From a virus, in IMG/VR virus record IMGVR_UViG_3300045970_000684, positions 1 through 40,358 of that record: a DNA stretch of 40,358 bases. One strand, given 5' to 3'. Under the pieces are notes generated by a model that made no database searches, was not told the origin of the DNA, and saw nothing but the letters and a program-made list of their open reading frames with translations. Shown here in pieces: positions 13 to 40,292 of this stretch. Position numbers and translations under genes: made by a program. Positions within the stretch are counted from its first letter, which is position 1; every line of letters begins with the position of its first letter.

Positions 13-98
13 GCCGGAGTGGCGGAACGGTATACGCGGCGGTCTCAAACACCGCTGGCCGAAAGGTCTTGTGGGTTCGAGTCCCACCTCCGGTACCA
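13..98 (+). tRNA. tRNA-Leu (anticodon CAA), 3' end rebuilt by the phage
   Basis: The acceptor stem GCCGGAG (13-19) pairs with CTCCGGT (88-94) with one G-U pair. Anticodon stem GCGGT/ACCGC encloses the loop CTCAAAC, giving anticodon CAA (reads UUG). The T-arm GTGGGTTCGAGTCCCAC is standard, the variable arm has the class II form of tRNA-Leu, and CCA is encoded at 96-98. Bases from 39 onward are shared with the right end of the prophage, so the 3' half of the working gene is phage-derived and the gene stays functional after integration. Confidence 0.95.
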
Positions 99-99
99 G
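39..99 (+). repeat. attL: attL: left copy of the 61-bp attachment repeat
   Basis: Bases 39-99 equal bases 40232-40292 at every position; the match breaks at 38/40231 (G vs A) and 100/40293 (T vs C). The repeat starts at the anticodon stem and runs to one base past the CCA of tRNA-Leu. The strand-exchange core lies inside it, probably at the anticodon or T-arm as in other tRNA-targeting tyrosine integrases, but the exact crossover cannot be placed. Confidence 0.93.
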
Positions 100-268: not shown

Positions 269-340
269 CGCAGGATGGTCCGGTGACCGGCCCGGCCCCA
301 TAAGCCGCGCAGCGGGGTCCGACTCCCCGTCCTGCAACCA
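269..340 (+). tRNA. tRNA-Met-like structure (anticodon CAT), possibly initiator-like or degenerate
   Basis: Bases 269-275 (CGCAGGA) pair with 330-336 (TCCTGCA) at six positions. The C-A mismatch at the first pair is the hallmark of bacterial initiator tRNA. A T-arm follows the usual plan: stem CGGGG/CCCCG with loop TCCGACT. The anticodon loop CCCATAA shows CAT, flanked by four pairs. Discriminator A and an encoded CCA end at 340. Weak points: U33 is replaced by C, the T-loop second base is C not T, the D-arm is short (three pairs, 8-base loop) and one anticodon-stem pair is missing. It is either a divergent phage tRNA or a tRNA-like relic. Confidence 0.42.
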
Positions 341-10752: not shown

Positions 10753-11382
10753 GTGGGAGCCGTCATCGAGTTCGAGGTCTTCCGCGACTCCCTTGGGGTG
10801 GCCGCGACAGATCCCGAGGTTGACGCTGTCAGCCTGCTGTTCAACGCGATCAACGCGGAGATCCGCCGGCTGACCCATCGCGCCTTCGAGGGCGACGGTG
10901 GCGGCTCCTACGACCAGGTCATCCGGATCCGCGGCGAGCGCGAGTTCACGCTGCCGTGGGGCCCGGTCGCCTCGATCACCAGCATCGCCCGGGTCCACTT
11001 CGACGCGACCGAGGACGATCCATACGAGACGACCGACTGGCGCCTCGAGGATGCCGATCGCGGCCGCGTCCTCCTCCGGTCCGGGTCGTCGGCGTGGGCT
11101 TCTGCGGCGCCCTTCTTCTACCGCGATCACCGTCGCGGCGGGCCCGAGTACGTCCATGTCATCTGGACCACCACCGGCGAGATCCCGGCCCAGCTCCCCC
11201 AGGCGTGCCTCGAGTGGGGCAAGAGCCGCTGGGACAGCCGCGACCGGGATCCGGCGATGGCCTCCTACCAGACCGGCGACGACGCCGAGAGCTACTTCGC
11301 CTCGCTCGCCGGCAAGCCGCCGCACGGCGTGCTGCTCGCGATCATGGGCGTGGCGCATCTGACCGGCGGGGGTGTGGTGTGA
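10753..11382 (+). CDS. Head-tail connector (adaptor) protein, gp6/gp15-like
   Basis: 209 residues from GTG. The start is helical (a segment holding AVSLLFNAINAEIRRLTHRAF), followed by beta strands around REFTLPWGPVASITSIARVH and a late helix LPQACLEWGKSRWDSRDRDP. This helix-strand-helix order with a conserved LPxxx(I/V)SITS-like segment is typical of HK97 gp6-type adaptors that plug below the portal. Gene order (capsid, this gene, closure protein, gp10-like) agrees. Confidence 0.78.
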   Translation: MGAVIEFEVFRDSLGVAATDPEVDAVSLLFNAINAEIRRLTHRAFEGDGGGSYDQVIRIRGEREFTLPWGPVASITSIARVHFDATEDDPYETTDWRLEDADRGRVLLRSGSSAWASAAPFFYRDHRRGGPEYVHVIWTTTGEIPAQLPQACLEWGKSRWDSRDRDPAMASYQTGDDAESYFASLAGKPPHGVLLAIMGVAHLTGGGVV

Positions 11383-11726
11383 GCATCGCCGCGCGCTTCC
11401 GCCACGAGCTCGTGATCAGCCGCTTCGGCGAGAGCGGCACCCCCAACGCCCGCGGCAACCTAGCGGCGGGCTGGGTCGACGACGCCGCGGCGCTCATGGG
11501 CAACCTCCAGGAGCGCAAGGCGCGCGAGGTGTCCACCGGCGAGCTCGGCGGCGTGGCGCTCAGCGACGCGATCGCGTTCCTGCCGATCACCGCGGCGACG
11601 TCGAGCCTGCGGGCGCCCGACCGCCTGCTGCACGCGGCCCGCGTCTACGAGCTCGTCGGCCTCCCGCGCGACGCCGGCGGCCGCGGCCGCCACCTCGAGG
11701 CGGACCTCCGCCGGGTGACCGCATGA
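11379..11726 (+). CDS. Head closure / head-tail stopper protein
   Basis: 115 residues, GTG overlapping the connector stop. It is a compact beta-rich protein with the segment QERKAREVSTGELGGVALSD and a late LHAARVYELVGLPRDAGGRGRH, which recalls SPP1 gp16/HK97 gp7-type stoppers. Size and place between the adaptor and the gp10-like gene are as expected. Assignment is from order and size more than from a signature. Confidence 0.68.
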   Translation: MSIAARFRHELVISRFGESGTPNARGNLAAGWVDDAAALMGNLQERKAREVSTGELGGVALSDAIAFLPITAATSSLRAPDRLLHAARVYELVGLPRDAGGRGRHLEADLRRVTA

Positions 11727-12178
11727 GCGCCAGCTTCCGCACCCGCCCGCGCGAGCTCGCGAAGCTGCGCGAGGCCGTGGCCTATGGGTTTCTCAACTTC
11801 GGCCACGCGGTCGAGACCGACGCCAAGCGCGACACCGTCGTCCGCGGCGGGCACCGCAGTTTCATGACCATGAAGAACGCCGACGGCTCGGCGCAGGTCG
11901 GCGGCACGCTGCGGCGGTCAGTGCACACCGCGGCCCACCTCGACGGCCAGCAGATCGGCGGCGTGGCCACCGACGAGAACGGCGCTGCGACGCCCGCCTA
12001 CGCGGCAGGCCCCGGGATCAGGGTCTTCGTCGGCACCAACTCCGGGTATGGCTTCTGGGTCGATCAGGGCACCAGCAAGATGCCGGCCCGCCCGGCCCTG
12101 GTCCCGGCGCTGCTCAAGAACAAGGGCGACGCCCCGGCGCTCATCGCCGCGGGCGCCAGGAAGAAACTCGGCCAGTGA
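11723..12178 (+). CDS. HK97 gp10-like tail completion protein
   Basis: 151 residues. The ending carries the best signature of the family, Y-GFWVDQGTSKMPARPALVPAL: a GT...MPARP(F/A)L motif. The middle has RDTVVRGGHRS and GGTLRRSVH segments that also fit. The start ATG overlaps the closure gene stop, and the stop overlaps the next GTG. The protein belongs to the neck of siphoviruses. Confidence 0.85.
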   Translation: MSASFRTRPRELAKLREAVAYGFLNFGHAVETDAKRDTVVRGGHRSFMTMKNADGSAQVGGTLRRSVHTAAHLDGQQIGGVATDENGAATPAYAAGPGIRVFVGTNSGYGFWVDQGTSKMPARPALVPALLKNKGDAPALIAAGARKKLGQ

Positions 12179-12591
12179 CGACCACGTACGCCGACCCGGT
12201 TGCAGCGTTCCGCGACGCCCTGCTCGCGCTGGCGCCGGCGACGGCCATCGCGGGTGTCGACGTGCGGACGAACAAGCGCCACGGCGGCGACTCGCCGCCG
12301 TACTTCATCGTCTCCGAGGGGGGCGACATCCAGCACCGCACGGCTGCGGTCTACAACCCGGCCCGGGTCAACGTCTCCGCCTACGGCCTCAATGCCGACC
12401 AGGCGGTCGACCTCTTCCGGACGGCGTCGCAGCTGGTCCACCGCACGGGGCCCCTCATCCGCAACGGCGTCGGGATCTTCCGGATCTTCGCCGAGACCGG
12501 GCTCCAGCAGCCACTCGAGGACCCCGACACCGGATGGTGGCGGGCGTTCGGCGTGTTCGACCTGGTCATGGTCGACCGCCCAGTCAGCTAG
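12175..12591 (+). CDS. Tail terminator-like protein
   Basis: 138 residues, GTG overlapping the gp10-like stop. A short N-terminal helix (DPVAAFRDALLAL) is followed by alternating strands and a second helix (NADQAVDLFRTASQLVH), the alpha/beta arrangement of gpU/gp17-type tail terminators. It lies directly before the major tail protein, the expected position. Function by order and fold impression. Confidence 0.7.
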   Translation: MTTTYADPVAAFRDALLALAPATAIAGVDVRTNKRHGGDSPPYFIVSEGGDIQHRTAAVYNPARVNVSAYGLNADQAVDLFRTASQLVHRTGPLIRNGVGIFRIFAETGLQQPLEDPDTGWWRAFGVFDLVMVDRPVS

Positions 12592-12612: not shown

Positions 12613-13650
12613 ATGACGACCACGATCCAGCCCGACCGCATGTTCTTCGGGGCGCCGGCGTCGCTCACCGTCGACGGCGTGGAGTCGGGCACGTCGTTCG
12701 ACGCGCCCAAGGTCACGATCGAGTACACGACCAACGCGGACAAGACCATGCCGCAGGGCGCCCGGTCCAAGATCAAGGGCCTCCTGTTCGTCAAGTCGGC
12801 CGTCTGCAAGGTCGTCTTCAAGGTCAACGAGTGGACGGCCGTCAAGCTCGGCTGGGTGATGCCCGGCGCGACCGCCACGTCCGCGGCGTCGGTCGGCGTC
12901 CCGGTCGCGGGACTCGACACCACCCTCGGCGCGGACCCCGCGCTCGGGGCCACGACGTTCCGGTTCGCCTCCGTCACGACGGTCGCGGCCGGCCAGTTCG
13001 TCAGGGTCGCGGCCGCAGGCGTGGCGGCAACCGAGGCGAACAGCGAGGTCATGCGCGTCGTGACCAAGGGCACCGCGGGAGGCACCGACACGGTCCTGGA
13101 GAACAGCGCCGGCGGCGGCGCCCTGCTCGACCACGCCAACGCGGCAGAGGTCAAGACCGTCATCGGGACGCTCCTCGCGGCTCCTGCCGTCGCGGGCGAC
13201 GTGAACGTCAAGGTCGACGCGGTGACGGGATCGTCCGCCCTCGCCCCCGGCGACATCGTCCGAATCGGCTACGCCAGCCACTACGAGACCCGGACGCTCA
13301 CCGCCGTCGGCACGGCGGGCCCATCGGGCACCGGGATCTCGTTCGCCGTGCCCCTCACCCGAGACCACGGCCTCGACGAGTGGGTCGTGGCGGTCACGTC
13401 GCTCGGCCTGACCACGATCCAGCCGGTCGCGGGACGGGTGCCCTCCTCGGCCCACCACGACGTGATCCTCACGGGGATCGGCCTCGACGGCCTGCCGCTG
13501 TACGTCGAGCTCGACGACGCGCTCTCGCTCGTCAACCAGGACATCGCCTTCAGCGACGACGACTGGTCGGGCTTCTCGGTCGAGCTCGAGGCGTACGGCG
13601 ATCCGCTCACGCCGTCCGTCCTCCCCTGGCGCATCAAGTACGGCGCGTAG
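12613..13650 (+). CDS. Major tail (tube) protein with an inserted repeat module
   Basis: 345 residues; the ATG has a good ribosome site (AAGAAGGAGG). The first 95 residues and the last 75 read as the tail-tube fold, with the ends SLTVDGVESG and GIGLDGLPLYVELDD. Between about residues 95 and 260 lies a module of two similar halves with GQFVRVAAAGVAAT and GDIVRIGY motifs. The same module occurs in the Dit-like gene at 16667-17542, and 59 bases are identical between the two genes. The insert probably decorates the outside of the tail tube. Confidence 0.82.
   Translation: MTTTIQPDRMFFGAPASLTVDGVESGTSFDAPKVTIEYTTNADKTMPQGARSKIKGLLFVKSAVCKVVFKVNEWTAVKLGWVMPGATATSAASVGVPVAGLDTTLGADPALGATTFRFASVTTVAAGQFVRVAAAGVAATEANSEVMRVVTKGTAGGTDTVLENSAGGGALLDHANAAEVKTVIGTLLAAPAVAGDVNVKVDAVTGSSALAPGDIVRIGYASHYETRTLTAVGTAGPSGTGISFAVPLTRDHGLDEWVVAVTSLGLTTIQPVAGRVPSSAHHDVILTGIGLDGLPLYVELDDALSLVNQDIAFSDDDWSGFSVELEAYGDPLTPSVLPWRIKYGA
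12970..13028 (+). repeat. 59-bp perfect repeat, copy 1 (in major tail gene)
   Basis: Identical to 17111-17169. It encodes the SVTTVAAGQFVRVAAAGVAA part of the shared tail module. Flanking positions diverge at once (C vs G before, A vs G after). Confidence 0.95.
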
Positions 13651-13655
13651 ACGCC

Positions 13656-14135
13656 ATGCCGAAGCTGACCGCTGCCGAAGAAGAGGCGATCGTCACCCGG
13701 GCCGGCCTGCCGGTCGTCCTGGGCGGTGCCGAGCGGACCGTGCTGCCGCTCGTGATCGCCGACAACCGGGCCTGGAAGAGCAAGGTCGTCGACGCGATCG
13801 CCGAGCGCTGGGGGGCGCTCGGCGGCGTGGGCGACTGGAAGGACGTCGTCAGGCTCCTCGCGTCCTCCGAGGACGCCCTGCTCGACCTGCTCCTGGCCTA
13901 CGACGCCGGCGCGACGCTCGGCGGCCGCGAGTGGATCGAGCACCACGCCACGGCCCGCGAGCTCCTCGAGGCCTTCAAGGTCGTCGCTAGAGAGGCCTTC
14001 CCTTTAGAGCACAGCGCGCTGGAGTCCTGGCCGGCCCTGGTCGGGATGCTCGTGCGCGCAGCGGGAGAGCGGATGTCCGGGCTGCCGGAACCGGACGGGC
14101 TGCCGGACCCGGAGAGCTCTACGAGTTCCTCCTGA
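13656..14135 (+). CDS. Tail assembly chaperone (gpG-like), 0-frame product
   Basis: 159 residues. It occupies the lambda G position: after the tail-tube gene and before the tape measure. Segments such as LLDLLLAYDAG and a central helix-rich body fit this class of short chaperones. Codons GCT AGA ... CCT TTA near 13987-14006 are unusual for this GC-rich gene and contain a CCCTTTA heptamer in the right frame for -1 slippage. The C-terminus after about 14079 is a low-complexity Pro/Glu/Asp then Ser/Thr tail, read only if no slippage occurs. Confidence 0.78.
   Translation: MPKLTAAEEEAIVTRAGLPVVLGGAERTVLPLVIADNRAWKSKVVDAIAERWGALGGVGDWKDVVRLLASSEDALLDLLLAYDAGATLGGREWIEHHATARELLEAFKVVAREAFPLEHSALESWPALVGMLVRAAGERMSGLPEPDGLPDPESSTSSS
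14000..14006 (+). promoter_or_regulatory. Candidate -1 ribosomal frameshift site CCCTTTA
   Basis: The heptamer reads C CCT TTA in the frame of the upstream chaperone, the canonical X XXY YYZ form. After slippage the frame is open without stops to 14434. CCT and TTA are rare choices here, so the sequence seems kept for another reason than protein. A later slip, near the end of the 0-frame ORF (14079-14132), is the alternative. Confidence 0.55.
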
Positions 14136-14434
14136 GCGAGTGGGGGCGCTTCCCGCGCGAGATCGACGAGGCGCTCACCGATGCGCAGCTGGTGCTCCTG
14201 GTCGAGAAGCGGGCCGAGCGCCGGCGGCGCGAGACGGACGAGGAGGCTGACCAGATGACGGTCGCGATGGCCAACGGCTACGTGATCGCCTTCGACGAGA
14301 AGGCGCGCGAGCACTGGATGAGCGCGCGCGAGCGCCGGTCCGGCGCGGCCGCCGAGGTGCAGACGGTCGGCGAGTACCGGGCCACCATGGCCCGCCTCGC
14401 TTCCCGGTTCCCCGACAACGTGGGGGTCAACTGA
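14003..14434 (+). CDS. Second tail chaperone frame (gpT-like), made as a -1 frameshift extension
   Basis: The -1 frame is open from the heptamer to the stop at 14432-14434. From about 14114 it reads ELYEFLLSEWGRFPREIDEA then LTDAQLVLLVEKRAERRRRE, a convincing coding stretch that begins well before the first start codon of this frame (GTG 14192). That is best explained by entry through frameshifting. The 35 residues between 14007 and 14113 are Arg/Gly/Ala-rich and less gene-like, which leaves the slip point open. The fusion product would be the gpGT equivalent that loads tail-tube subunits on the tape measure. Confidence 0.65.
   Translation, partial: FRAQRAGVLAGPGRDARARSGRADVRAAGTGRAAGPGELYEFLLSEWGRFPREIDEALTDAQLVLLVEKRAERRRRETDEEADQMTVAMANGYVIAFDEKAREHWMSARERRSGAAAEVQTVGEYRATMARLASRFPDNVGVN
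14079..14114 (+). repeat. 18-bp tandem repeat at the chaperone frame junction
   Basis: Two units, 14079-14096 and 14097-14114, 16 of 18 bases alike, both starting GGGCTGCCGGA. They encode GLPEPD/GLPDPE in the 0 frame and lie just where the -1 frame becomes gene-like. Confidence 0.7.
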
Positions 14435-14435
14435 C

Positions 14436-16670
14436 GTGCCCGGCCTGACCATCGCCGACGCCGCGATCGCCATCGGCGGCGACCTCGCGGGCTTCGACAA
14501 GAGCCTGGACGTCGCCAAGGGCAAGGCGACGACGCTGGGCGGCACGCTCAAGGGCATCTTCAGCCCGAAGAACATCATGGCCGGAATCGGGGCAGCCGGC
14601 GGGGCGGCGCTCGGGGCCGCCCTCAGCGGCGCGAACCAGCTCGACGCGGCGGCCCGCCAGCTGCAGGCGGACGCCGGCCTCACGGCGGTCGAGGCGAAGA
14701 AGGCCGAGCACGCGCTCGCCGGCATGTACAGGAACAACCTCCAGGGCTTTGACGAGATCGGCGCGGCGATGGCGGCGGTCCACAACGACCTCGGCCTGGC
14801 CGGAGACGCAGCGGACGCGATGACCGCGAAGTTCCTGAAGTTCGCCACGGCAACCAAGCAGGATGCGGCGGGCGCGGTCATGGCCTTCGACGACATCCTC
14901 GACGCCTGGAACCTCACGGCCGCCGACGCCGGCGGGATCATGGACAAGCTGATCGTCTCGCACCAGAAGTTCGGCGGGGTGATCAGCGAGAGCCAGGCGG
15001 CCCTCAAGACCATGGCGCCCGCGATGCAGGCCGCCAACATGTCGATCGACGACGGGATCGCGCTCCTCAACCTGTTCAACGCCGCCGGCATCGACGCTGC
15101 GAAGGCGCCGGCCGCTCTCGCCCGGGCCGTGGCCCAGCTGAAGCCGGGGCAGTCGCTCGACGACCTGATCGCGCAGATCGCCTCGATCGAGGACCCGACC
15201 ATGCGCGGGCAGAAGGCGATGGAGATCTTCGGCGTCCGGGGCGGCATCCAGCTGGCGCAGGCGTTCAAGCCGGGCATCCAGAGCCTCGACGACTTCGCGG
15301 TCAGCGCGGCCGGCGCTGCCGGCGCCACGGACGAGGCCGCGAAGGCCATCCAGGAGGGCTTCGGCAACAAGTTCAAGCAGCTCATGAAGAACGCCGGCGG
15401 CTTCCTGGCCGAGTTCGGGACCAACTTCGGCGATGTGGTCATGATCGCCTCGGCGTTCGGACCCCAGCTGGCCAAGGCCATCGGTGCAGGGCTCGCCGGG
15501 CTCGCCGGGCTGCTCATCCCCAAGATCGCCGCAGAGCTCGGCCAGACGCTCCCCGCGTGGATCGCGGGCGGCAAGGCGGGCGGCGCCGCGGCGGGCGCTG
15601 CGGCCGGCACGTCGTTCGCCGGGCAGTTCATCATGGGCGCGACCGGGGCCGGCATCGCGGTGTGGCTCGGCGACCTGATCCGCGACGCGCTGAACAAGGC
15701 GATCCCCACCGGGGCGCCGACCGCGCCAGGCTTCTTCGACATGCTGTTCAGCGGCGGCAAGTCTCTCGAGGACCACGTCAACAGCATGGGCTCCAAGGCG
15801 GCAGCCGCAGGCGCGGACGCCGGCGCGGCTGCTACGGAAGGCGTCAAGTACGGGCTCGTCTCGGGCAAGCCCGGGGTCGCGAACGCGGCAGGGAAGGTCG
15901 GGGACGCGATCCGGGACCCGATCGCGAGCGCCGCGCGGTTCGTCTACAAGACCTTGTTCGACACCATGCAGCTGACCGCCGACGAGTTCCGGTCGAAGTG
16001 GGCCGAGCTCACGTCGATCGGCAACGATGCCGCGGCCGCGATCTACGGTGTCCAGAACCGTGCCTCGGCGCTCGCCGCGAACGGGCGGGAGATCGCGGCG
16101 CAACAGGAGATCCTCGCGTCGAAGAAGTCCACCGGCGCCCAGAAGCAGGACGCCCGCGACCGGCTGCTCGCGCTCCAGCAGGAGGGCTTGGGGATCCGGA
16201 TCGAGATGGCCGGCCGCGGGGAGCTCTCAAAGAAGGCGTACGCCACCCTGATCTCCACGCTCCAGAAGCAGGCGAAGTCCGGCAACGCCGAGGTCGCGAA
16301 CGCAGCGCGCCTCGCGCTGGCCGAGCTCGAGAAGCTCCTGTCGGCGTGGTCCGCGCTCCCGCCGACGCTGCGCCGGGACTTCACCGGCGGCCAGGGCAAG
16401 GGCGGCTTCGCCACGGGCACGCCCTACGTCCCCTACGACATGGTGGCCCAGATCCACCAGGGCGAGATCATCGTGCCCCGCGCGCAGTCAGACGCGATCC
16501 GGGCCGGGCGGGCGACGCTCGGCGCCGGCGGCGACACGGGCGGCTCTCTAACCGTCAACATCTACCCGGACCGCGACACGTCCCTCCAGACCGCGGGCCG
16601 GTTCGGGCAGGCCGTCCTCGATGTGGTCGCCAATGGGCTCCGCGAGCAGCGCGCCCGGAGCGCGTCATGA
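14436..16670 (+). CDS. Tail tape measure protein
   Basis: 744 residues from GTG, one base after the chaperone frame stop. It starts with a helix-rich region and a TP901-type minor tail domain (about residues 60-300), recognisable from segments like AGDAADAMTAKFLKFATATK and SQAALKTMAPAMQAANMSID. A hydrophobic Gly/Ala-rich stretch (about 345-415) holds possible membrane-spanning segments used at DNA injection. The C-terminal part is charged and helical and ends in QIHQGEIIVPRAQSDAIRAG. By the usual 0.15 nm per residue, the tail would be about 110 nm long. Confidence 0.92.
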   Translation: MPGLTIADAAIAIGGDLAGFDKSLDVAKGKATTLGGTLKGIFSPKNIMAGIGAAGGAALGAALSGANQLDAAARQLQADAGLTAVEAKKAEHALAGMYRNNLQGFDEIGAAMAAVHNDLGLAGDAADAMTAKFLKFATATKQDAAGAVMAFDDILDAWNLTAADAGGIMDKLIVSHQKFGGVISESQAALKTMAPAMQAANMSIDDGIALLNLFNAAGIDAAKAPAALARAVAQLKPGQSLDDLIAQIASIEDPTMRGQKAMEIFGVRGGIQLAQAFKPGIQSLDDFAVSAAGAAGATDEAAKAIQEGFGNKFKQLMKNAGGFLAEFGTNFGDVVMIASAFGPQLAKAIGAGLAGLAGLLIPKIAAELGQTLPAWIAGGKAGGAAAGAAAGTSFAGQFIMGATGAGIAVWLGDLIRDALNKAIPTGAPTAPGFFDMLFSGGKSLEDHVNSMGSKAAAAGADAGAAATEGVKYGLVSGKPGVANAAGKVGDAIRDPIASAARFVYKTLFDTMQLTADEFRSKWAELTSIGNDAAAAIYGVQNRASALAANGREIAAQQEILASKKSTGAQKQDARDRLLALQQEGLGIRIEMAGRGELSKKAYATLISTLQKQAKSGNAEVANAARLALAELEKLLSAWSALPPTLRRDFTGGQGKGGFATGTPYVPYDMVAQIHQGEIIVPRAQSDAIRAGRATLGAGGDTGGSLTVNIYPDRDTSLQTAGRFGQAVLDVVANGLREQRARSAS

Positions 16671-17542
16671 CGCTGGGCACACTCTCGCTCGGCGCCGTGG
16701 ATCCCGTGTGGAGCAAGTCGTTCAGCGGGTTCGACTATCCGAACACCGCGCAGCTCCTCCCGGTCCTCGGCGACGGCACCAGCGCGCGCAACGCCGTCCT
16801 CCAGCAGTCCGCGCCAACCGTCCGCCAGGGCTCGCTCGCCTGCACGCTTGAGACGGCGGACATGCTGACAATTCGCGGGTACTACGAGTCCCGCGAGGCC
16901 GTGGTGTTCACGGACGCGGACGGGTCCGTGAACACCTGCAGAGTGTTCGACTTCACGCGGACCTTCGGTGATCCCGACTGGGACGTCACCATCGTCCTGC
17001 TCGAGACAGACGCGGTTGCGGAGGGCCCCGGCGTTGGCTTCCCCGTGGCCGGGCTCGACACGATGCTCGCCGCGGACCCGGCCGCCGGGGCGGTGAACCT
17101 CAAGGTGGCGTCCGTCACGACGGTCGCGGCCGGCCAGTTCGTCAGGGTCGCGGCCGCAGGCGTGGCGGCGACTGCGCTCAACTCCGAGGTCGTCCTGGCG
17201 ATCACGGTCGGCACCACCGGCTCCGGCGGCACCGGGCTCGGGATCGAGAGCGACACCGGCGGCGGGATGGTCCTCGACCGCGCCAGCGCCGACGAGGTGA
17301 AGACCGTCACCGGCACCCTGCTCGCGGCGCCCGCCGGCACCGGGGCAACCACCGTCAGGGTCGACAGCGTGACCAACCTCGCCATCGGAACGGTCCTGCG
17401 CATCGGCTACCTCGGGCGGTACGAGCGCCGCGCCCTCACCGCCGTCGGCACCGCTGGGCCGTCCGGGACCGGGGTGTCGTTCACCGCGCCCCTGCTGTTC
17501 GCCCACGGCCACAACGAGTGGGCCGTCGTGGTGGTCCCCTGA
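16667..17542 (+). CDS. Distal tail (Dit)-like protein carrying the duplicated module
   Basis: 291 residues, ATG overlapping the tape-measure stop. The first 125 residues (SLGAVDPVWSKSFSGFDYPN onward) take the place of a Dit protein. The remaining 165 residues are a two-part module closely related to residues 95-260 of the major tail protein, with the same VAGLDTML/VAGLDTTL opening and TAVGTAGPSGTG near the end. The protein stops right after the module, so the module is an appended C-terminal domain here but an internal insertion there. Confidence 0.68.
   Translation: MTLGTLSLGAVDPVWSKSFSGFDYPNTAQLLPVLGDGTSARNAVLQQSAPTVRQGSLACTLETADMLTIRGYYESREAVVFTDADGSVNTCRVFDFTRTFGDPDWDVTIVLLETDAVAEGPGVGFPVAGLDTMLAADPAAGAVNLKVASVTTVAAGQFVRVAAAGVAATALNSEVVLAITVGTTGSGGTGLGIESDTGGGMVLDRASADEVKTVTGTLLAAPAGTGATTVRVDSVTNLAIGTVLRIGYLGRYERRALTAVGTAGPSGTGVSFTAPLLFAHGHNEWAVVVVP
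17111..17169 (+). repeat. 59-bp perfect repeat, copy 2 (in Dit-like gene)
   Basis: Identical to 12970-13028 and in the same orientation and reading context, 4.1 kb away. The identity covers third codon positions too, so the two modules exchanged sequence recently, by duplication or gene conversion. Confidence 0.95.
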
Positions 17543-21950: not shown

Positions 21951-22118
21951 CTAGGCCGGACCGCCCGTCCAGCCGGCCGCAGCGTCCGTGTAGAGGCTGC
22001 AGTCGACCGCGGGCGCACTGCCCACGGCATACCCGGAGAGCCACCGCCACGCGGCGAGCGCGAGGAACGGCAGCGACAGGAGCACCATGACGGTCCGCCA
22101 GCTGGTCCTCTCGCTCAT
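21951..22118 (-). CDS. Small single-TM membrane protein
   Basis: 55 residues if started at the ATG at 22118, which has a strong ribosome site (GGGAGGGGG, 6 bases before). A longer reading starts at 22172 but that region is a conserved leader, see the shared element. Residues about 7-25 form one membrane helix (TVMVLLSLPFLALAAWRWL); the rest is short and contains one Cys. It is encoded against the late genes, so it is likely to be expressed in the lysogen. Function unknown. Confidence 0.6.
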   Translation of the reverse strand: MSERTSWRTVMVLLSLPFLALAAWRWLSGYAVGSAPAVDCSLYTDAAAGWTGGPA

Positions 22119-22165
22119 CGTCGCCCCCTCCCACATAAGCGCCGGCGAAGTTCGGCGAGCCATAA

Positions 22166-22179
22166 TCATCATGCCCCCG
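22166..22179 (-). promoter_or_regulatory. Shared moron leader element, copy 1
   Basis: TCATCATGCCCCCG on the plus strand, identical to 23901-23914. Between this block and each start codon is a CTTAT (minus strand) whose distance from the ATG is the same in both genes (17 bases). It is probably part of the promoter or leader of the minus-strand genes. Confidence 0.5.
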
Positions 22180-22242
22180 GCAACGCGGGTCGTGGACGCG
22201 ATCCCGGCTCTGCCGGCCAGCTCGAGCGGCTGCGACCGGGGG

Positions 22243-22725
22243 TCACTCGCAGGCGACCCCGTCGTTGTCGCGGTCCAGGCCCGAGCGGTAGCCCGGCTCG
22301 CCCCGGTAGAGCGGCGCCGCTCCGGTAGAGCGGACCGCGGTGCAGTTCTTGTAGTAGACCGCGGCAGGCTTCGGGGTCGGCCGGGGGGTCGCCTTGGGCG
22401 TCGGCTTGGGCGTCGGCTTGGGCGTCGGCTTGGGTGTGGGGGCGGCGGTCGGCGCGGGCCGGGCGGTCGGCGCCGCAGTCGGAGCCGCAGTCGGAGCCGC
22501 AGTCGCCAGGGGCCTCAGCGTCGCGGCGGGCGCGAGGAACGGCTGGGGGGTCTGCGTCCACGCCTCCGCGAGCGGCGTCATCCGGACCGTCGGCGCGGCA
22601 GTCGCTGCCGCCGCCATCGTCGCCATCGTCGCCACGGCCGTGTCGGCCTGGCCCGGTGCCGAGCCGCAGGCCGAGAGCGCCAGCGAGAGCGCGACGATGG
22701 TCGCGGCTGTTCCGATCCTGTTCAC
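22243..22725 (-). CDS. Secreted lipoprotein with Excalibur calcium-binding domain
   Basis: 160 residues from GTG. A lipoprotein signal peptide ends in the lipobox LSAC (Cys20). A long Ala/Thr/Pro linker follows, with TPKP units in tandem. The last 38 residues form an Excalibur domain: YYKNCTAVR, then [10 protein letters not shown] and the Ca-binding [10 protein letters not shown]. Excalibur domains occur in surface proteins of Gram-positive and related bacteria. Encoded on the minus strand inside the prophage, it is a typical lysogenic-conversion (moron) gene, and could change the cell surface, for instance phage receptor access. That role is inferred. Confidence 0.88.
22393..22440 (-). repeat. 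12-bp tandem repeats coding for the TPKP linker
   Basis: Four units of CTTGGGCGTCGG (the last diverged) encode the Thr-Pro-Lys-Pro repeats of the lipoprotein linker. A second set of three 12-bp units (GCCGCAGTCGGA) at 22472-22507 encodes its APTA repeats. Both sets are prone to length change by slippage. Confidence 0.8.
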
Positions 22726-22824
22726 GGGTTCCCCTCTTGTCCGGATCCTGGTGTGGCGGACGCCGCGCGATTGTCTGCCCCCGGACGGGCTGGCGGACCG
22801 ATCCGTTCGGCAGGTATTGGCGCG

Positions 22825-23025
22825 CTACCCGCCGGGCGGGGCGGCGTCCTGTTCATCGTCTGCCCAGGCGAGCCGCCAGAGCGCATACAGCAGGCCGACC
22901 GGCCCGAGCACGACCCCGGCCGTGAACCAGATAACCGGGTGGGCGCCCTTCCATGCCGCGATGACCGCGCAGGCGAAGGGCGCGATCACCCAGATGCCGA
23001 TGATCGCGACTCCGACGAAGTACAC
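22825..23025 (-). CDS. Small two-TM membrane protein
   Basis: 66 residues from GTG at 23025, which has a strong ribosome site (GGGGGAGGGG). Two hydrophobic stretches (about 3-22 and 31-48) with a short WKGAHPVIWF connector and a charged Asp/Glu tail. The gene starts 12 bases after the stop of the zinc-finger/PH-like gene, so they form an operon. The following 99 bases (22726-22824) hold no gene and include the upstream region of the lipoprotein. Function unknown; membrane exclusion of other phages is one possibility. Confidence 0.6.
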   Translation of the reverse strand: MYFVGVAIIGIWVIAPFACAVIAAWKGAHPVIWFTAGVVLGPVGLLYALWRLAWADDEQDAAPPGG

Positions 23026-23037
23026 CGACCCCTCCCC

Positions 23038-23859
23038 CTACAGCAGCTTCTGCGACGCCGCGTTGACCACCGCGGCGACCATCGGCCCGCTGGCCACCCG
23101 GAACATGGACGGGTTCTGGCGGTTGCTCACGTGGAACTGGATCCCGTCGGTGTAGACGTTCATGTCGACGAGCTTCGCGTACTGCACCTCGATCGACTTC
23201 CGCTCGCCCGTGTAGACCACGCGGTGGGAGGTGACGTGCAGCGCGCCGGCGTCGGCCGCGACGATCGACCGGCCCACCTCGACCATGCGGCCCCTGGTCG
23301 CCCCGACGCGGTAGCTCACGCCCTTGGCGATCCGGAACGACACGCCCTGCGGCTCGTCGAGGTGCAGGACCTCGCCCTTCTTGAGGATCATGCCGCTGCC
23401 GGGGAGCACCGGCAGCCGGCCGTCGTTCACCATCGCGATGAAGAGCTGGGCGCGGTAGGGCTCCATCGCGGCGGCGAGGGCTGCCCGGTTGCCCTCGTAG
23501 AGCGCCATGCCGAGCTTGACGATGCCCTCTTCCTCGTCCCCGCTCAGGACCTCGTCAGCGAGCGCTCGACGCAGATACGAGTTGAGGAACTCGGTCTTCG
23601 CCGCCGCCGGCTGCCCGCCGCCCTGGACGATGGCGCGCTCCAGGTCGGCGATCGGCTGGCTCGGCGGCCGACCGGCGGCGATGGCCTCCAGCGCGGCCGG
23701 GTAGGCCGCCATGGCCTGCTGGCCCGCGGCGCGGGCAGCCGCCAACAGCCTATCCGCCTCGACACGGGCGAGCTCCATGCACGCGCCGCAGCGGGATCGG
23801 CCGCGGGCGCGCTCCGTGAAGCCCAGGCCCTTGCCGCAGTCCTCGCACGCGCTGGCCAT
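23038..23859 (-). CDS. Zinc-finger protein with C-terminal PH-like domain
   Basis: 273 residues. The N-terminus has a two-CxxC ribbon (CEDCGKGL at 5 and CGACM at 24). A helical middle part covers residues 30-140. The C-terminal 130 residues have the look of a bacterial PH/GRAM-like domain: GEVLHLDEP, then ALHVTSHRVVYTGERKSIEV with the typical T-xx-R-vvy strand, then DGIQFHVSNRQNPSMFRV. Such proteins occur in high-GC bacteria without a known reaction. In the prophage it is a minus-strand gene beside an SOS-type site; a moron role is inferred. Confidence 0.72.
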   Translation of the reverse strand: MASACEDCGKGLGFTERARGRSRCGACMELARVEADRLLAAARAAGQQAMAAYPAALEAIAAGRPPSQPIADLERAIVQGGGQPAAAKTEFLNSYLRRALADEVLSGDEEEGIVKLGMALYEGNRAALAAAMEPYRAQLFIAMVNDGRLPVLPGSGMILKKGEVLHLDEPQGVSFRIAKGVSYRVGATRGRMVEVGRSIVAADAGALHVTSHRVVYTGERKSIEVQYAKLVDMNVYTDGIQFHVSNRQNPSMFRVASGPMVAAVVNAASQKLL

Positions 23860-23900
23860 CGCTCGCTCCCCTCAGATAAGCCGCGGCTAAGTCGCCGCCG

Positions 23901-23914
23901 TCATCATGCCCCCG
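23901..23914 (-). promoter_or_regulatory. Shared moron leader element, copy 2
   Basis: Identical 14-base block upstream of the zinc-finger/PH-like gene (start 23859), with the same CTTAT 17 bases before the start codon. A partial form (CGGGGGCA on the minus strand) also lies upstream of the lipoprotein gene near 22778-22785. Confidence 0.5.
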
Positions 23915-23927
23915 CGACGCACCCGCC

Positions 23928-23945
23928 TGTGCACAGGCGTGCACA
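23928..23945. promoter_or_regulatory. Inverted repeat TGTGCAC-N4-GTGCACA
   Basis: Perfect 7-base arms around AGGC, in the divergent region between the minus-strand zinc-finger/PH-like gene and the rightward small gene. A likely binding site for a dimeric repressor, perhaps the phage's own. Confidence 0.5.
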
Positions 23946-23978
23946 ACTCAGGAACATTCCGCGCGGGAATGGTGGACA

Positions 23979-23998
23979 AATCGAACGCTCGTTCGATT
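23979..23998. promoter_or_regulatory. SOS/LexA-type operator in a rightward promoter
   Basis: Perfect 9-base arms AATCGAACG / CGTTCGATT with a CT centre. The core CGAAC-GCTC-GTTCG (23982-23995) fits the Gram-positive/actinobacterial LexA box CGAAC-N4-GTTCG. It lies between a TGGACA -35-like hexamer (23973-23978) and a weak -10 near 23995-24001, so a repressor there would block the promoter. It suggests that DNA damage is sensed at this spot. Host LexA binding is inferred. Confidence 0.6.
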
Positions 23999-24046
23999 AC
24001 GCTTGCCTGCCCGGCGGCGATCGCCGGAGGAACGGAGGGGAACACC

Positions 24047-24226
24047 GTGGGGGATCCAGCCACCGACCCGCGCGAGATCAGGGTCTTCGACGATTTCGAA
24101 GATGAGCTCGCCGCGGCGACGGAAGCGGCCATCAGGCGGCTCCGTGCTCGTCTGTCTGAGCTTGATCGACACCGCGCTTCCGAGCGCGTGACAGGCGACG
24201 AGCCAGCTCCGCTTCCCGAGGACTGA
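24047..24226 (+). CDS. Small acidic helical protein under the SOS-type operator
   Basis: 59 residues from GTG with an excellent ribosome site (GGAGGGG, 6 bases before). The sequence is helical and charged: REIRVFDDFEDELAAATEAA followed by an Arg-rich helix. Its 3' end overlaps the 3' end of the minus-strand repressor gene by 95 bases. A small gene under a LexA-type box could be an antirepressor or a damage-induced regulator, but no family is recognised. Confidence 0.5.
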   Translation: MGDPATDPREIRVFDDFEDELAAATEAAIRRLRARLSELDRHRASERVTGDEPAPLPED

Positions 24227-26979: not shown

Positions 26980-28115
26980 CGCGCCTTGCCGTCGTCGCCG
27001 ACGTCCACTGCGACGACTTCGGATCCAAGACGGACCCGGCCACGGGCCTCAACGCCCGATGGGCGGACACCGTCGGCATGCTGCGCTGGGTGGCGCTCGA
27101 CGCCCGGGCGCGCGGCTGCGACGCCCTGGTGGTCGCGGGCGACCTCTCCGAGGCCCGGCACCCGGCCCCTTGGCGCGTCGCCCAGATCGGCGAGGCGCTG
27201 GACGCCTTCGACGGGCCCGTGGTCCTCGTGCGCGGCAACCACGACGGGCTCCGGGCGGGACGCTCGATCGCCGACGTCCTCGCCGCGGGCCGCCCCGGCT
27301 GGTCGGGGTTCTCGAGCCCCGGGATCGCGGTCGTGGGCGACACCGCCGTGGCGTGCCTGCCGTACCTCGACAAGCACCACATGCGGGCGCTGCCCGGCTA
27401 CGAGTCGGTCCCGGAGGCCGAGGTCTTCGCGGTCCTCGCCGACGCCTACATCACGATCGCCCGCGGGCTGTACGCGGAGGCCCGCGCCACGAGCGCCCGG
27501 TCGGCCGTGCTGGTGGTCCACCAGGCGCTCGCCGGCGGGTCCATGAGCGAGGCGCAGCAGGTGTTCCTGGGCGACCACGCCCTCGTCGCCGACACCCGGG
27601 CGCTGGCGGCCATCGGGTTCGAGGCGGTCCTCGCCGGGCACTTCCACAAGCACCAGGTGCTGTCGGAGTCGCCGCTGGTCGCCTACGCGGGGTCGCCCTA
27701 CCGGACCGACTTCGGCGAGGAGCACCAGGCCAAGGGGTACATGGTCGTGGACGTCGCCCCGGGTTCCGCCGCGATGGAGTTCGTGGAGTCGCCGGCGCGC
27801 CGGTTCTACACCATCGACCTCGCCAAGGTCTTCGCAGACCACGCGGTAGGCGCGGCGGAGGGAGCCGTCGTGCGCGTCGTCAACGCGCCGGCCGACATGG
27901 ACGCGGCGGCGCTGCGGAGGCGGCTCGAGGACGCGGGCGCGTTCGACGTCGTCGAGATCCGCCGGGCGCCGGTGGCTGCAGCAGCTGCTGCCGGAAGCAT
28001 GGCCGAGGGCCTCGCCCCGGCGGCCGCCCTGGCCGAGTACTTCGCCGCGGATCCGGACGCCGCTGTTTTGGTGGAGCGCGGCCGCGAGCTGCTGGCCGAG
28101 GCGGTGGCGGCATGA
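26976..28115 (+). CDS. sbcD: SbcD/Mre11-like nuclease subunit
   Basis: 379 residues. All metallophosphoesterase motifs are present: DVH (9-11), GDLSE (55), GNHD (87-90), VVHQ with His182, and GHFHKH (221-226). The C-terminal 80 residues form a capping/partner-binding part. With the SbcC-like ATPase encoded next (ATGA overlap) it should form the SbcCD (Mre11-Rad50) complex that trims DNA ends and hairpins. In phages such pairs (T4 gp47/gp46, T5) serve recombination-dependent replication. Confidence 0.92.
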   Translation: MTRLAVVADVHCDDFGSKTDPATGLNARWADTVGMLRWVALDARARGCDALVVAGDLSEARHPAPWRVAQIGEALDAFDGPVVLVRGNHDGLRAGRSIADVLAAGRPGWSGFSSPGIAVVGDTAVACLPYLDKHHMRALPGYESVPEAEVFAVLADAYITIARGLYAEARATSARSAVLVVHQALAGGSMSEAQQVFLGDHALVADTRALAAIGFEAVLAGHFHKHQVLSESPLVAYAGSPYRTDFGEEHQAKGYMVVDVAPGSAAMEFVESPARRFYTIDLAKVFADHAVGAAEGAVVRVVNAPADMDAAALRRRLEDAGAFDVVEIRRAPVAAAAAAGSMAEGLAPAAALAEYFAADPDAAVLVERGRELLAEAVAA

Positions 28116-30340
28116 GGCTCGACCGGATCGTCCTGAAGAACTTCCTTTCGCACGCCGACACGACGTGGGAGCCGGAGGGCGCCCGGCTGGTCTCCCTGGT
28201 CGGGGCCAACGGCGCCGGCAAGTCCTCGCTGCTGGATGCCGTGGCGTTCTGCCTCTACGACAGCGCCCGCGGGCGCACCGACGACCTCGTGCGGCTCGGC
28301 GCCGACGACATGAGCGCACGGGTCGAGTTCGCGTTCGCCGGGTCCCGCTACGCCGTCGAGCGCGGCCGCACCCGGCGCGCCGGCGGCAAGTCCTACCTGG
28401 AGCTCCAGATCGCCGACGGCGACGGCTGGCGGCCCCTCACGGGCGACAGCATCCGCGAGACGCAGGACGCCGTCGCGGCCCTGCTCCGGATGGACGCCTC
28501 GACGTTCTCCCAGGCGGCCCTGCTGATGCAGGGGCGGCTCAACGCCTTCGCCGACGCGACGCCGGGCGACCGCAAGCGCGTCCTCGGGCAGGTGCTCGGG
28601 CTCGACGTCTGGGCGCGCGCCGAGCAGTCCGCCCGCGTCCGCGCCCGCGACCTTGACGCCCGCCTCGCCGCAGAGCGCGGGCAGGTCGAGCGGATGGACG
28701 CCAGGCTGGCCGACCGGCCCCGCCTCGAGGACCTCTCGGCCATCGCGGCCCGGGACGTCGCCGAGCTCGACGCCGGCACGGCCGCCCAGACATCCGCGCG
28801 GGATGCCGCGTCGGCCGCGGTCGCCGCGCTGGACGCCAGGCTCGCCGCCGCGGACGCGCAGCGGGCACTCGCGGACCAGCTGGACGCCCGCGTGGCCGAG
28901 CTCGCGGGACGGTACAGGGACGCGCAGGCGCGGCGGGGATTCGCGGCCGCGGCGGCCGACCGGGCCGCACTGGCGATCGGCGCCGGCGCCGGCGCCGCTG
29001 AGGCGCTCGAGGGCCTCCCCGCCGCCAGGGCCCGGCTGGAGTCGCTCGAGGCGCTGCGCGAGCGCGACGCCGAGATGCGCGAGCAGGTCCGGGCCCGGCG
29101 CGAGGTCCACGCGGCGGCATCGGCCGAGGGCCGCCAGGCGGCCGCCGAGTGGACGGCCCGGCACACCTCGGCGCAGGCCCGGGTGGACGACCTCGCGCAG
29201 GCCGCGCAGGCGCTCAAGCCCGTCCCCTGCCCCAAGTGCGGGACGCCCGTGACGGCCGACGGGGGCGACCTGTACCGGCGCCTGGACGCCGCCCGCGCGG
29301 AGCTCCGCGCCATGGGCGACCAGCCTCCCAACACCACGGGGTGGACGCAGCTCGAGATCGAGGCGAACAAGGTCCGCGCGCTCGAGGCGCAGCGGGTGGC
29401 GCTCGGCTTCGACCCGGCCGCCGTGGCCGCGGCGTCGTCAGGGCTCCGCTCGCTGGAAGCGCTGGCCGCCCGGGCCGGCGGGGTCGCAGACGCGGAGGCG
29501 TCGCTGGCCGAGGCGCAGGGCGCGATCGCGGACGCCGAGGCCGAGATGGCCCGGGTCACCCGCGACGGGGCGGCCGCGCGCGAGGCGTCAGACGCCGCCC
29601 GCCGCGAGCTCGCGGCCCTGGACCCCGTCCGCGCGGAGCGGCTGGAGCGCTCCCTCGAGGCCGCCGCGGCCTCCCAGGCGCTCCGGGTGCTCGCCCTGCA
29701 GCTGCGCCAGGCGCAGGAGGCCGCCGCCCACGCCGCCGCCGGGCTCGCCGAGCTGGACCGGGTCCGGGACGAGCGCGACGCCGCGGTATCCGCGATCGCC
29801 GGCCTCGAGCGCGAGGGGTCTGTCCTGCGCCGGCTCGTGTCGGCGTTCGGGGTCGCGGGCATCCCCGCGCGGATCATCGAGGGGACGATCCCGGAGCTCG
29901 AGCAATACGCCAACGAGCTCCTGTCCCAGCTCCGCCCCGGGATGGCGCTGTCGATCCGCTCGCAGCGGGCCAAGAAGTCGGGCGACGGGATGATCGAGGC
30001 GCTCGACCTGGTCGTCCAGGACGACGCCGGGGAGCGGCCGCTGGCGATGTTCTCGGGCGGCGAGCGGATGAGCGCCTCGCTCGCCCTCGCGGTCGGCCTC
30101 TCGCGCCTCGTGGCGCGCCGGGCCGGCACCGCCGTTCGCACGCTGGTTGTGGATGAGCCGGACGGGCTGGACTCGGATGCCAGGCGCTCCTTCGGCCAGG
30201 CCCTCCGGGTGCTCGCCCATCTCGGCGAGCTGGAGCGGGTCGTCCTGGTCAGCCACCACGAGGACCTCGCGGAGATGGCCGACGCGGTCTACAGGGTCGA
30301 GAAGAGCGCCGGCGGGTCGTCCGTCGGGCTCGCGGCATAG
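28112..30340 (+). CDS. sbcC: SbcC/Rad50-like SMC-type ATPase
   Basis: 742 residues. Walker A GANGAGKSS is at 31-39; a long Ala/Arg/Glu coiled coil follows; a zinc hook CPKC is at Cys373-Cys376; the second coil runs to about 590; the ABC signature FSGGER and Walker B VVDEPDGLDSD (Asp681-Glu682) close the head. It is shorter than the bacterial 1000-residue SbcC, as in phage forms, and the hook lies exactly mid-chain. It works with the SbcD-like subunit. Confidence 0.93.
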   Translation: MRLDRIVLKNFLSHADTTWEPEGARLVSLVGANGAGKSSLLDAVAFCLYDSARGRTDDLVRLGADDMSARVEFAFAGSRYAVERGRTRRAGGKSYLELQIADGDGWRPLTGDSIRETQDAVAALLRMDASTFSQAALLMQGRLNAFADATPGDRKRVLGQVLGLDVWARAEQSARVRARDLDARLAAERGQVERMDARLADRPRLEDLSAIAARDVAELDAGTAAQTSARDAASAAVAALDARLAAADAQRALADQLDARVAELAGRYRDAQARRGFAAAAADRAALAIGAGAGAAEALEGLPAARARLESLEALRERDAEMREQVRARREVHAAASAEGRQAAAEWTARHTSAQARVDDLAQAAQALKPVPCPKCGTPVTADGGDLYRRLDAARAELRAMGDQPPNTTGWTQLEIEANKVRALEAQRVALGFDPAAVAAASSGLRSLEALAARAGGVADAEASLAEAQGAIADAEAEMARVTRDGAAAREASDAARRELAALDPVRAERLERSLEAAAASQALRVLALQLRQAQEAAAHAAAGLAELDRVRDERDAAVSAIAGLEREGSVLRRLVSAFGVAGIPARIIEGTIPELEQYANELLSQLRPGMALSIRSQRAKKSGDGMIEALDLVVQDDAGERPLAMFSGGERMSASLALAVGLSRLVARRAGTAVRTLVVDEPDGLDSDARRSFGQALRVLAHLGELERVVLVSHHEDLAEMADAVYRVEKSAGGSSVGLAA

Positions 30341-40231: not shown

Positions 40232-40292
40232 GCGGTCTCAAACACCGCTGGCCGAAAGGTCTTGTGGGTTCGAGTCCCACCTCCGGTACCAG
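40232..40292 (+). repeat. attR: attR: right copy of the 61-bp attachment repeat (tRNA-Leu 3' remnant)
   Basis: Perfect copy of 39-99. It carries the anticodon stem-loop, variable arm, T-arm and CCA of tRNA-Leu(CAA) but no acceptor 5' strand or D-arm, so it is the displaced 3' end of the original host gene and not a working tRNA. It lies 52 bases after the integrase stop codon. Confidence 0.93.

What the first reader, a model, noticed from the sequence alone, without database searches (positions are those of the whole stretch)
12900..17540. Same ~165-residue module inserted in the major tail protein and appended to the Dit-like protein
The two modules share order, motifs and a 59-base perfect DNA identity (12970-13028 = 17111-17169). 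Each module itself has two similar halves (FVRVAAAG... and IVRIGY...). So an ancient internal duplication plus a recent exchange between two tail genes is visible. The module may be an Ig-like surface patch present along the tube and at the tip, and could bind cell surface material.
Basis: seen in the sequence. Interest (0 to 1): 0.75.

Follow-up and report, generated by a model that had tools for sequence, protein, structure and literature searches.

The report
Portable barrel cassette on phage tail
A small barrel-shaped protein module has been copied into two tail proteins of a bacterial virus and, in its relatives, moves in and out of several virion proteins like a plug-in part, which probably changes how the virus touches its host.

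Summary
Observation confirmed. [quoted passage not shown] The module is two diverged copies of a ~74-aa unit. One unit is predicted with high confidence (pLDDT 94.6) as a six-stranded beta-barrel. Its closest solved matches are a domain of the phage Mystique tail tube, the K1-lyase 'rider' and a JBD30 baseplate domain, rather than a classical Ig domain.

New evidence: the unit is a portable cassette. Complete related MTPs carry two (12), one (4) or none (2). Module identity is unrelated to MTP-core identity (Mantel r about -0.02, against 0.95 between the core's two halves). The neck head-completion protein carries one unit in 8 of 18 loci. Homologous Dit cores carry it at opposite ends, from different donor lineages. 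The 59-bp tract is best read as gene conversion. Related units occur in Chloroflexota prophage and exported proteins.

Most likely role: surface decoration giving weak, multivalent host contact (inferred). Rival: ring-stabilising latch. New variant of a known kind.

The parts
12613..13650 (+). major tail (tube) protein, 345 aa; core = about residues 1-92 and 265-345
   Evidence: phrog_885 major tail protein, weak (E 4.6e-5); module-free relative L062 hits phrog_885 at 1.9e-10
12892..13398 (+). inserted double module of the MTP
   Evidence: empty site in L062 and L057, single unit in L021, L048, L058, L059
12916..13164 (+). unit A of the MTP module
13165..13395 (+). unit B of the MTP module
12970..13028 (+). 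59-bp tract identical to 17111-17169 (inferred conversion tract)
14436..16670 (+). tape measure protein
   Evidence: PF10145 7.9e-11; phrog_991 2.6e-17
16667..17542 (+). Dit-position tail-tip protein, 291 aa; core = residues 1-122
   Evidence: first gene after the tape measure; no Pfam, PHROG or PDB hit; core homologous to the L014 protein in the same place, 38% over 109 aa, E 6e-18
17030..17533 (+). C-terminal double module of the Dit-position protein
17057..17311 (+). unit A of the Dit module
   Evidence: groups with MTP units A (support 98/93)
17312..17533 (+). unit B of the Dit module; the unit whose structure was predicted
   Evidence: groups with MTP units B (100/99); pLDDT 94.6, pTM 0.80
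17111..17169 (+). 59-bp tract identical to 12970-13028
11379..11726 (+). neck (head-completion-like) protein, here without the unit: the empty version
   Evidence: scaffold profile hit E 8.8e-5; unit present in the same loop in 8 of 18 loci

Best explanation
The module is two tandem copies of a portable ~74-aa beta-barrel domain that sits on the outside of ring-forming virion proteins. In this prophage it lies in a loop of the tube protein, so it should be repeated along the whole tail, and it also hangs at the C-terminus of the Dit-position protein. Shown: duplication, gain or loss at the same sites in relatives, swapping between tube proteins independently of their core, independent capture by homologous Dit cores from different donors, and a recent-looking conversion tract between the two genes. 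Inferred: it works as a surface decoration that gives many weak contacts with host-surface polymers and so helps adsorption, and it is swapped because those polymers vary.
For: MTP states two/one/none in 12/4/2 of 18 complete MTPs. L046 shares 85% of its core but 61% of its module with the window, while sharing 83% of its module and 43% of its core with L004. Mantel core-module r = -0.016 (11 MTPs) and -0.019 (12 MTPs), against 0.95 for N-core versus C-core. AU tests: the module tree rejects a group that the core tree supports (L005, L006, L007, L008, L013, L017, L019; p 0.0007) and the close-core pair L007+L019 (p 0.0001); the core tree rejects L003+L013 (p 0.0003) and L005+L019 (p 1e-8). Neck unit present in 8 and absent in 10 of 18 loci. 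Dit cores of window and L014 are homologous, with units at opposite ends; the L014 unit groups with neck units (69% to L008 neck), the window's with MTP units. L059 carries a CarboxypepD_reg domain on a weakly related core. Fold matches include tail-tube, baseplate and polysaccharide-lyase domains. Precedent: 936 phages carry carbohydrate-binding modules on neck, MTP and Dit, with binding shown for one from the tail and one from the neck (PMC6669499, passages); Ig-like domains of the Douge tube and capsid label M. smegmatis (PMC13033339, passages).
Against: No ligand or binding site was identified and no binding was tested. The barrel fold is common and not diagnostic of sugar binding. In YSD1 the domain inserted in the tube acts as a ring-stabilising latch (PMC7385642, passages), and in K1 lyase the rider stabilises the trimer, although it also lines a carbohydrate site (PMC8822698, passages). 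AU tests did not reject W+L003 (p 0.22) or L005+L008 (p 0.15) for the module. The module range of identities (0.59-0.83) is narrower than the core's (0.35-0.89), which weakens the correlation test; within the 7 most similar cores core-module r was 0.27 (p 0.12) against 0.65 for N-C. The Dit label rests on gene order.
Confidence: 0.55

Rival explanations
1. The unit is a structural latch: it clasps neighbouring subunits and stiffens hexameric rings (stopper, tube, Dit); any surface contact is secondary.
For: YSD1 tail-tube domain 2, inserted in the tube protein, buries 950 A2 per subunit and locks the hexamer (PMC7385642, passages). The Mystique tube domain, best fold match (Z 11.5), sits at the matching place 106-177. 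K1 lyase rider mutations lower thermal stability (PMC8822698, passages). Neck, tube and Dit proteins are ring formers (recalled).
Against: A latch tied to the neighbouring core should co-vary with it, but module and core identity are unrelated. Close relatives lack it in the neck and in the tube (L062, 64% core identity to the window). Related units occur in SecD, a TadE/VWA protein and a LamG-GDSL protein. A latch made only of unit-unit contacts would escape the first objection.
Confidence: 0.27
2. The unit is a near-neutral passenger: a stable barrel that is tolerated in exposed loops and spreads by recombination without much effect.
For: Presence/absence within close relatives, varied sites (internal, N-terminal, C-terminal), unrelated host proteins.
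Against: Open frames and conservation: module identity never falls below 0.59 among MTPs whose cores fall to 0.35; unit B motifs such as RDHGLDEW are nearly invariant in MTPs.
Confidence: 0.13
3. The 59-bp identity is a metagenome assembly or read-correction artefact rather than gene conversion.
For: The window is a virus record classed by IMG/VR, probably assembled from a metagenome (inference); no reads are available here.
Against: Both copies lie in intact frames in coherent gene order, and the flanking module sequence is about 70% identical, too diverged for correction to equalise only one tract.
Confidence: 0.05

Closest known systems
Domain inside the tail tube protein of Acinetobacter phage Mystique (PDB 9n71) and domain 2 of Salmonella phage YSD1
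   Same: Fold of Mystique residues 106-177 of 264 (Z 11.5, rmsd 1.5 over 69 residues), inserted within the tube protein as here; weak profile match E 0.01. That this stretch is the external D1 of the Mystique paper, and the counterpart of YSD1 domain 2, is inferred from the passages
   Different: One copy, no significant sequence-level link; YSD1 authors call it distinctive of chi and relatives; here single or double, swapped between cores and shared with neck and Dit-position proteins
Oligosaccharide-binding (OB) domain V of the JBD30 distal tail protein
   Same: Baseplate match 8rk3_D 252-323, Z 9.7, coincides with OB domain V, residues 252-320, of the distal tail protein (PMC11445458, passages); that chain D is that protein is inferred
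   Different: Inserted in a larger two-core Dit; no such domain reported for its neck in the passages read
Rider domain of Klebsiella phage K1 lyase (PF24149)
   Same: Fold Z 11.1 over 73 residues; weak sequence hits below cut-off (4 of 28 units, best E 0.0057)
   Different: Sits on a tailspike beta-helix, stabilises the trimer and lines a second sugar site (PMC8822698, passages)
Carbohydrate-binding modules on neck, MTP and Dit of lactococcal 936 phages
   Same: Same idea: decoration modules on the same three places of the virion (PMC6669499, passages)
   Different: BppA-like and other CBMs; the passages read do not describe sequence exchange between the three genes
Promiscuous Ig-like domains of phages (Fraser et al. 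2006, recalled; cited in PMC13033339)
   Same: Small beta domain scattered over unrelated virion proteins
   Different: Different family and, by closest matches, a barrel of rider/OB kind

Membership tests
Classical phage Ig-like families (Big_2, I-set, FN3) | Match to an Ig-family sequence model | tested here: not met
   No Ig family among Pfam, PHROG or NCBIfam hits of 28 units nor among Pfam hits of the whole proteins
Classical phage Ig-like families (Big_2, I-set, FN3) | Ig fold | tested here: inconclusive
   Top fold matches are tail-tube, rider and OB barrels; absence of Ig rows shows nothing, and YSD1 authors call the inserted tube domain a DE-variant Ig-like fold
K1-lyase Rider PF24149 | Score above the Pfam gathering cut-off | tested here: not met
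   4 of 28 units, best E 0.0057; related unit in L036 17.2 bits against 27
K1-lyase Rider PF24149 | Fold | tested here: met
   7w1d_H 142-229, Z 11.1, rmsd 1.7, 73 residues
Inserted tail-tube domain (Mystique / YSD1 domain 2) | Fold and place inside the tube protein | tested here: met
   9n71_A 106-177 Z 11.5; module inserted between core halves with an empty site in L062
Inserted tail-tube domain (Mystique / YSD1 domain 2) | Sequence homology | tested here: inconclusive
   Unit profile hits 9n71_B 108-134 at E 0.01
Inserted tail-tube domain (Mystique / YSD1 domain 2) | Latches neighbouring subunits | not testable with these tools
   No assembly model was made
Carbohydrate-binding decoration (936-type) | Binds host cells or sugar | not testable with these tools
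   Needs protein and host
Distal tail protein (Dit) | Match to a Dit family | tested here: not met
   No PHROG, Pfam or PDB hit for the 291-aa protein; called Dit-position by gene order only

The most novel reading that the evidence does not exclude
One undescribed barrel family acts as a plug-in surface layer for a whole siphophage axis: in phages of uncultured, probably Chloroflexota, hosts it has entered adaptor, head-completion, tube and Dit-position proteins, is exchanged between them within and between genomes by recombination and conversion, and is drawn from the same pool as domains of the hosts' own exported proteins, so that tube scaffold and surface specificity evolve separately.
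Probability: 0.4. Interest if true: 0.72.

Novelty: new variant of a known kind. Interest (0 to 1): 0.52.

Why it matters
It shows step by step how one decoration domain spreads between virion proteins: filled and empty sites, single and double states, donor lineages and a conversion tract can all be seen. If the units bind the host, phages of poorly cultured hosts can change the surface of a whole tail tube without touching the tube scaffold. It also points to a domain family without a model above curated cut-offs in the Pfam and NCBIfam copies searched here, so tail genes bearing it could now be annotated.

Tried and rejected
Whole-MTP structure prediction from 7 rows failed (mean pLDDT 39.8) and was not used. 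tblastn of module, MTP, L021 MTP and L005 neck against 50,697 phage records gave nothing; one query with two bacterial units against plasmids gave nothing. The whole Dit protein found no relative in viral contigs and the L014 Dit or the two-row Dit-core alignment only L014's own record; L059 was noticed later by profile (E 2.5e-4). Profile comparison of Dit core with MTP gave nothing. One row of alignment A3 was in a wrong frame (L013) and one L014 unit was missing; both were put right in A4, and A3 was not used further. L018 (truncated) was left out of MTP counts. The W-L057 identity printed rests on a truncated L057 and is not used. Low-complexity and chance explanations of the 59-bp tract were tested and rejected. 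Papers: searches for 9N71, shared tail domains, rider (66), Chloroflexi prophage tails (67), Mystique (81) and Chi (93) gave no report, in the listings, of this cassette in neck, tube and Dit; only passages of PMC13033339, PMC6669499, PMC8822698, PMC11445458, PMC10276861, PMC12013898 and PMC7385642 were read.

Full report
What was checked. The window is a 40,358-bp virus record at 72% G+C with a 61-bp direct repeat near its ends (39-99 = 40232-40292), the first copy lying in a tRNA-Leu predicted at 13-98, and an integrase at the right end, so it reads as a complete prophage. The tail genes run: head-tail adaptor (10753-11382, phrog_442), neck protein (11379-11726), tail terminator (12175-12591, phrog_123), MTP (12613-13650), tape measure (14436-16670), Dit-position protein (16667-17542).

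Observation. The MTP and Dit-position protein share a 170-residue module at 62% identity (E 4e-48) with an exact 59-bp tract. The DNA is about 70% identical over the module. The tract exceeds all 20,000 codon shuffles, and given the fixed amino-acid matches, 19 identical codons in a row arose in 4 of 20,000. In the other double-module MTPs the same stretch differs at 15-26 of 59 bases (11 of 11 examined), so the identity is private to the window's two copies. That is what a recent conversion between two older, diverged copies predicts. Module halves are themselves homologous.

What the module is. A 32-row alignment of single units gave a confident AlphaFold2 model of the Dit unit B: pLDDT 94.6, pTM 0.80, strands 2-4, 14-17, 28-33, 36-45, 52-57, 70-73, no helix. 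Foldseek gave no PDB match at E 0.001 or better but plausible ones just above, and two BFVD matches at that level, one annotated as a tail-sheath-domain protein. VIA-align of Foldseek's candidates put first the Mystique tail tube 106-177 (Z 11.5), phage Chi tail tip 236-309 (11.3), K1 lyase 142-229 (11.1), LKA1 tailspike 288-368 (10.2) and JBD30 baseplate 252-323 (9.7); T5 Dit pb9 95-169 scored 7.8, near the background that the tool warns of. So the unit is a rider/OB-like small barrel. A shared fold shows no function.

Where else it occurs. Among 18 complete MTPs (17 related records plus the window) 12 carry the double module, 4 a single unit (L021, L048, L058, L059) and 2 none (L057, L062). 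L062 has 64% core identity to the window and a clean empty site. One further record, L018, ends inside the module. The neck protein, a weak PF05521 head-completion match in unit-bearing examples (below the cut-off), has one unit in 8 of 18 loci (L004, L005, L008, L013, L014, L021, L058, L059) and none in 10 (window, L003, L006, L007, L017, L018, L019, L046, L048, L062); in L057 no neck gene was found. The Dit-position core is homologous between the window and L014 (63 bits; best of 200 shuffles 19.6), but the window has two MTP-type units at the C-terminus and L014 one neck-type unit near the N-terminus. L059 has a CarboxypepD_reg domain in front of a weakly related core. The other loci whose post-tape-measure protein I read (L003-L008, L017, and L019 cut by the contig end) carry other protein types there without the unit.

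Cassette behaviour. Among 11 double-module MTPs the two core halves track each other (Mantel r 0.949), while core and module do not (r -0.016, p 0.55); with L046 added the values are 0.954 and -0.019. Leaving out the most distant cores the contrast weakens but stays (9 MTPs 0.855 and 0.18; 8 MTPs 0.66 and 0.06; 7 MTPs 0.65 and 0.27). Topology tests agree in part: the module rejects L007+L019 and the seven-member core clade, the core rejects L003+L013, L004+L006 and L005+L019, but the module does not reject W+L003 or L005+L008. Clades were chosen after seeing identities, so these p-values are indicative. The clearest single case is L046: core 85% like the window, module 83% like that of L004, whose core is 43% like it.

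Wider spread. In a search of 400 Chloroflexota genomes, 16 held the unit at E 0.001 or better, one of them the MAG that gave L019 (title: Chloroflexi bacterium). That the window's own host is a Chloroflexota is inferred from this relative only. Ten of the other host proteins were run against Pfam, six of these also against PHROGs, and six further ones against Pfam. Assigned: SecD with the unit between its first and head P1 parts (L026), a TadE/VWA protein with two units (L024), a LamG-GDSL protein (L025), multicopper oxidases (L034, L037, L038, L045), a Phage_tube_2 tube protein with the unit inserted (L036), and head-tail adaptors (L033, L039, L041, L042; weak phrog_442 matches). L040 looks like a tube protein by eye but had no hit; L030, L031 and L035 had none.

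How it probably works. The tube has six subunits per ring (recalled), so a double module would present very many units along the tail plus a few at the tip. Swapping freely between cores fits a part whose partner lies outside the tube. Precedents for such parts binding hosts are the 936 phages and Douge (PMC6669499, PMC13033339, passages). The main rival is a latch, as in YSD1 (PMC7385642, passages). Shown: anatomy, homology, presence/absence, exchange. Inferred: exposure, binding, selective reason.

Verdict. A real and well-supported shared module; the Ig label is doubtful, the adhesion role unproven; the mobility of the cassette across virion proteins is the new part.

Noticed in passing
window 39-99 and 40232-40292: 61-bp perfect direct repeat at the ends; the left copy lies in tRNA-Leu(caa) 13-98, so the element looks like an integrated prophage with att sites.
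   Followed up: partly
window 269-340: A second tRNA gene, tRNA-Met(cat), just inside the left end.
   Followed up: no
window 22393-22434: Short tandem DNA repeat (12-bp steps) near the start of the 672-aa open frame 22087-24105, which had no family hit.
   Followed up: no
window 27059-30340: 1093-aa SbcC/SMC-like protein; family matches start only at residue ~352, so the start codon may lie further in.
   Followed up: no
L026 1141-2658: SecD of an unnamed Chloroflexota genome carries a related unit between two parts of its P1 domain.
   Followed up: partly
L034, L037, L038, L045: Large multicopper-oxidase proteins of Chloroflexota carry a related unit in similar surroundings.
   Followed up: no
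L033, L039, L041, L042: Head-tail adaptor-like (phrog_442) proteins carry a related unit: a further virion ring protein with the cassette.
   Followed up: partly
L059 12324-12941: Dit-position protein with a CarboxypepD_reg domain in place of the barrel unit, on a weakly related core.
   Followed up: partly
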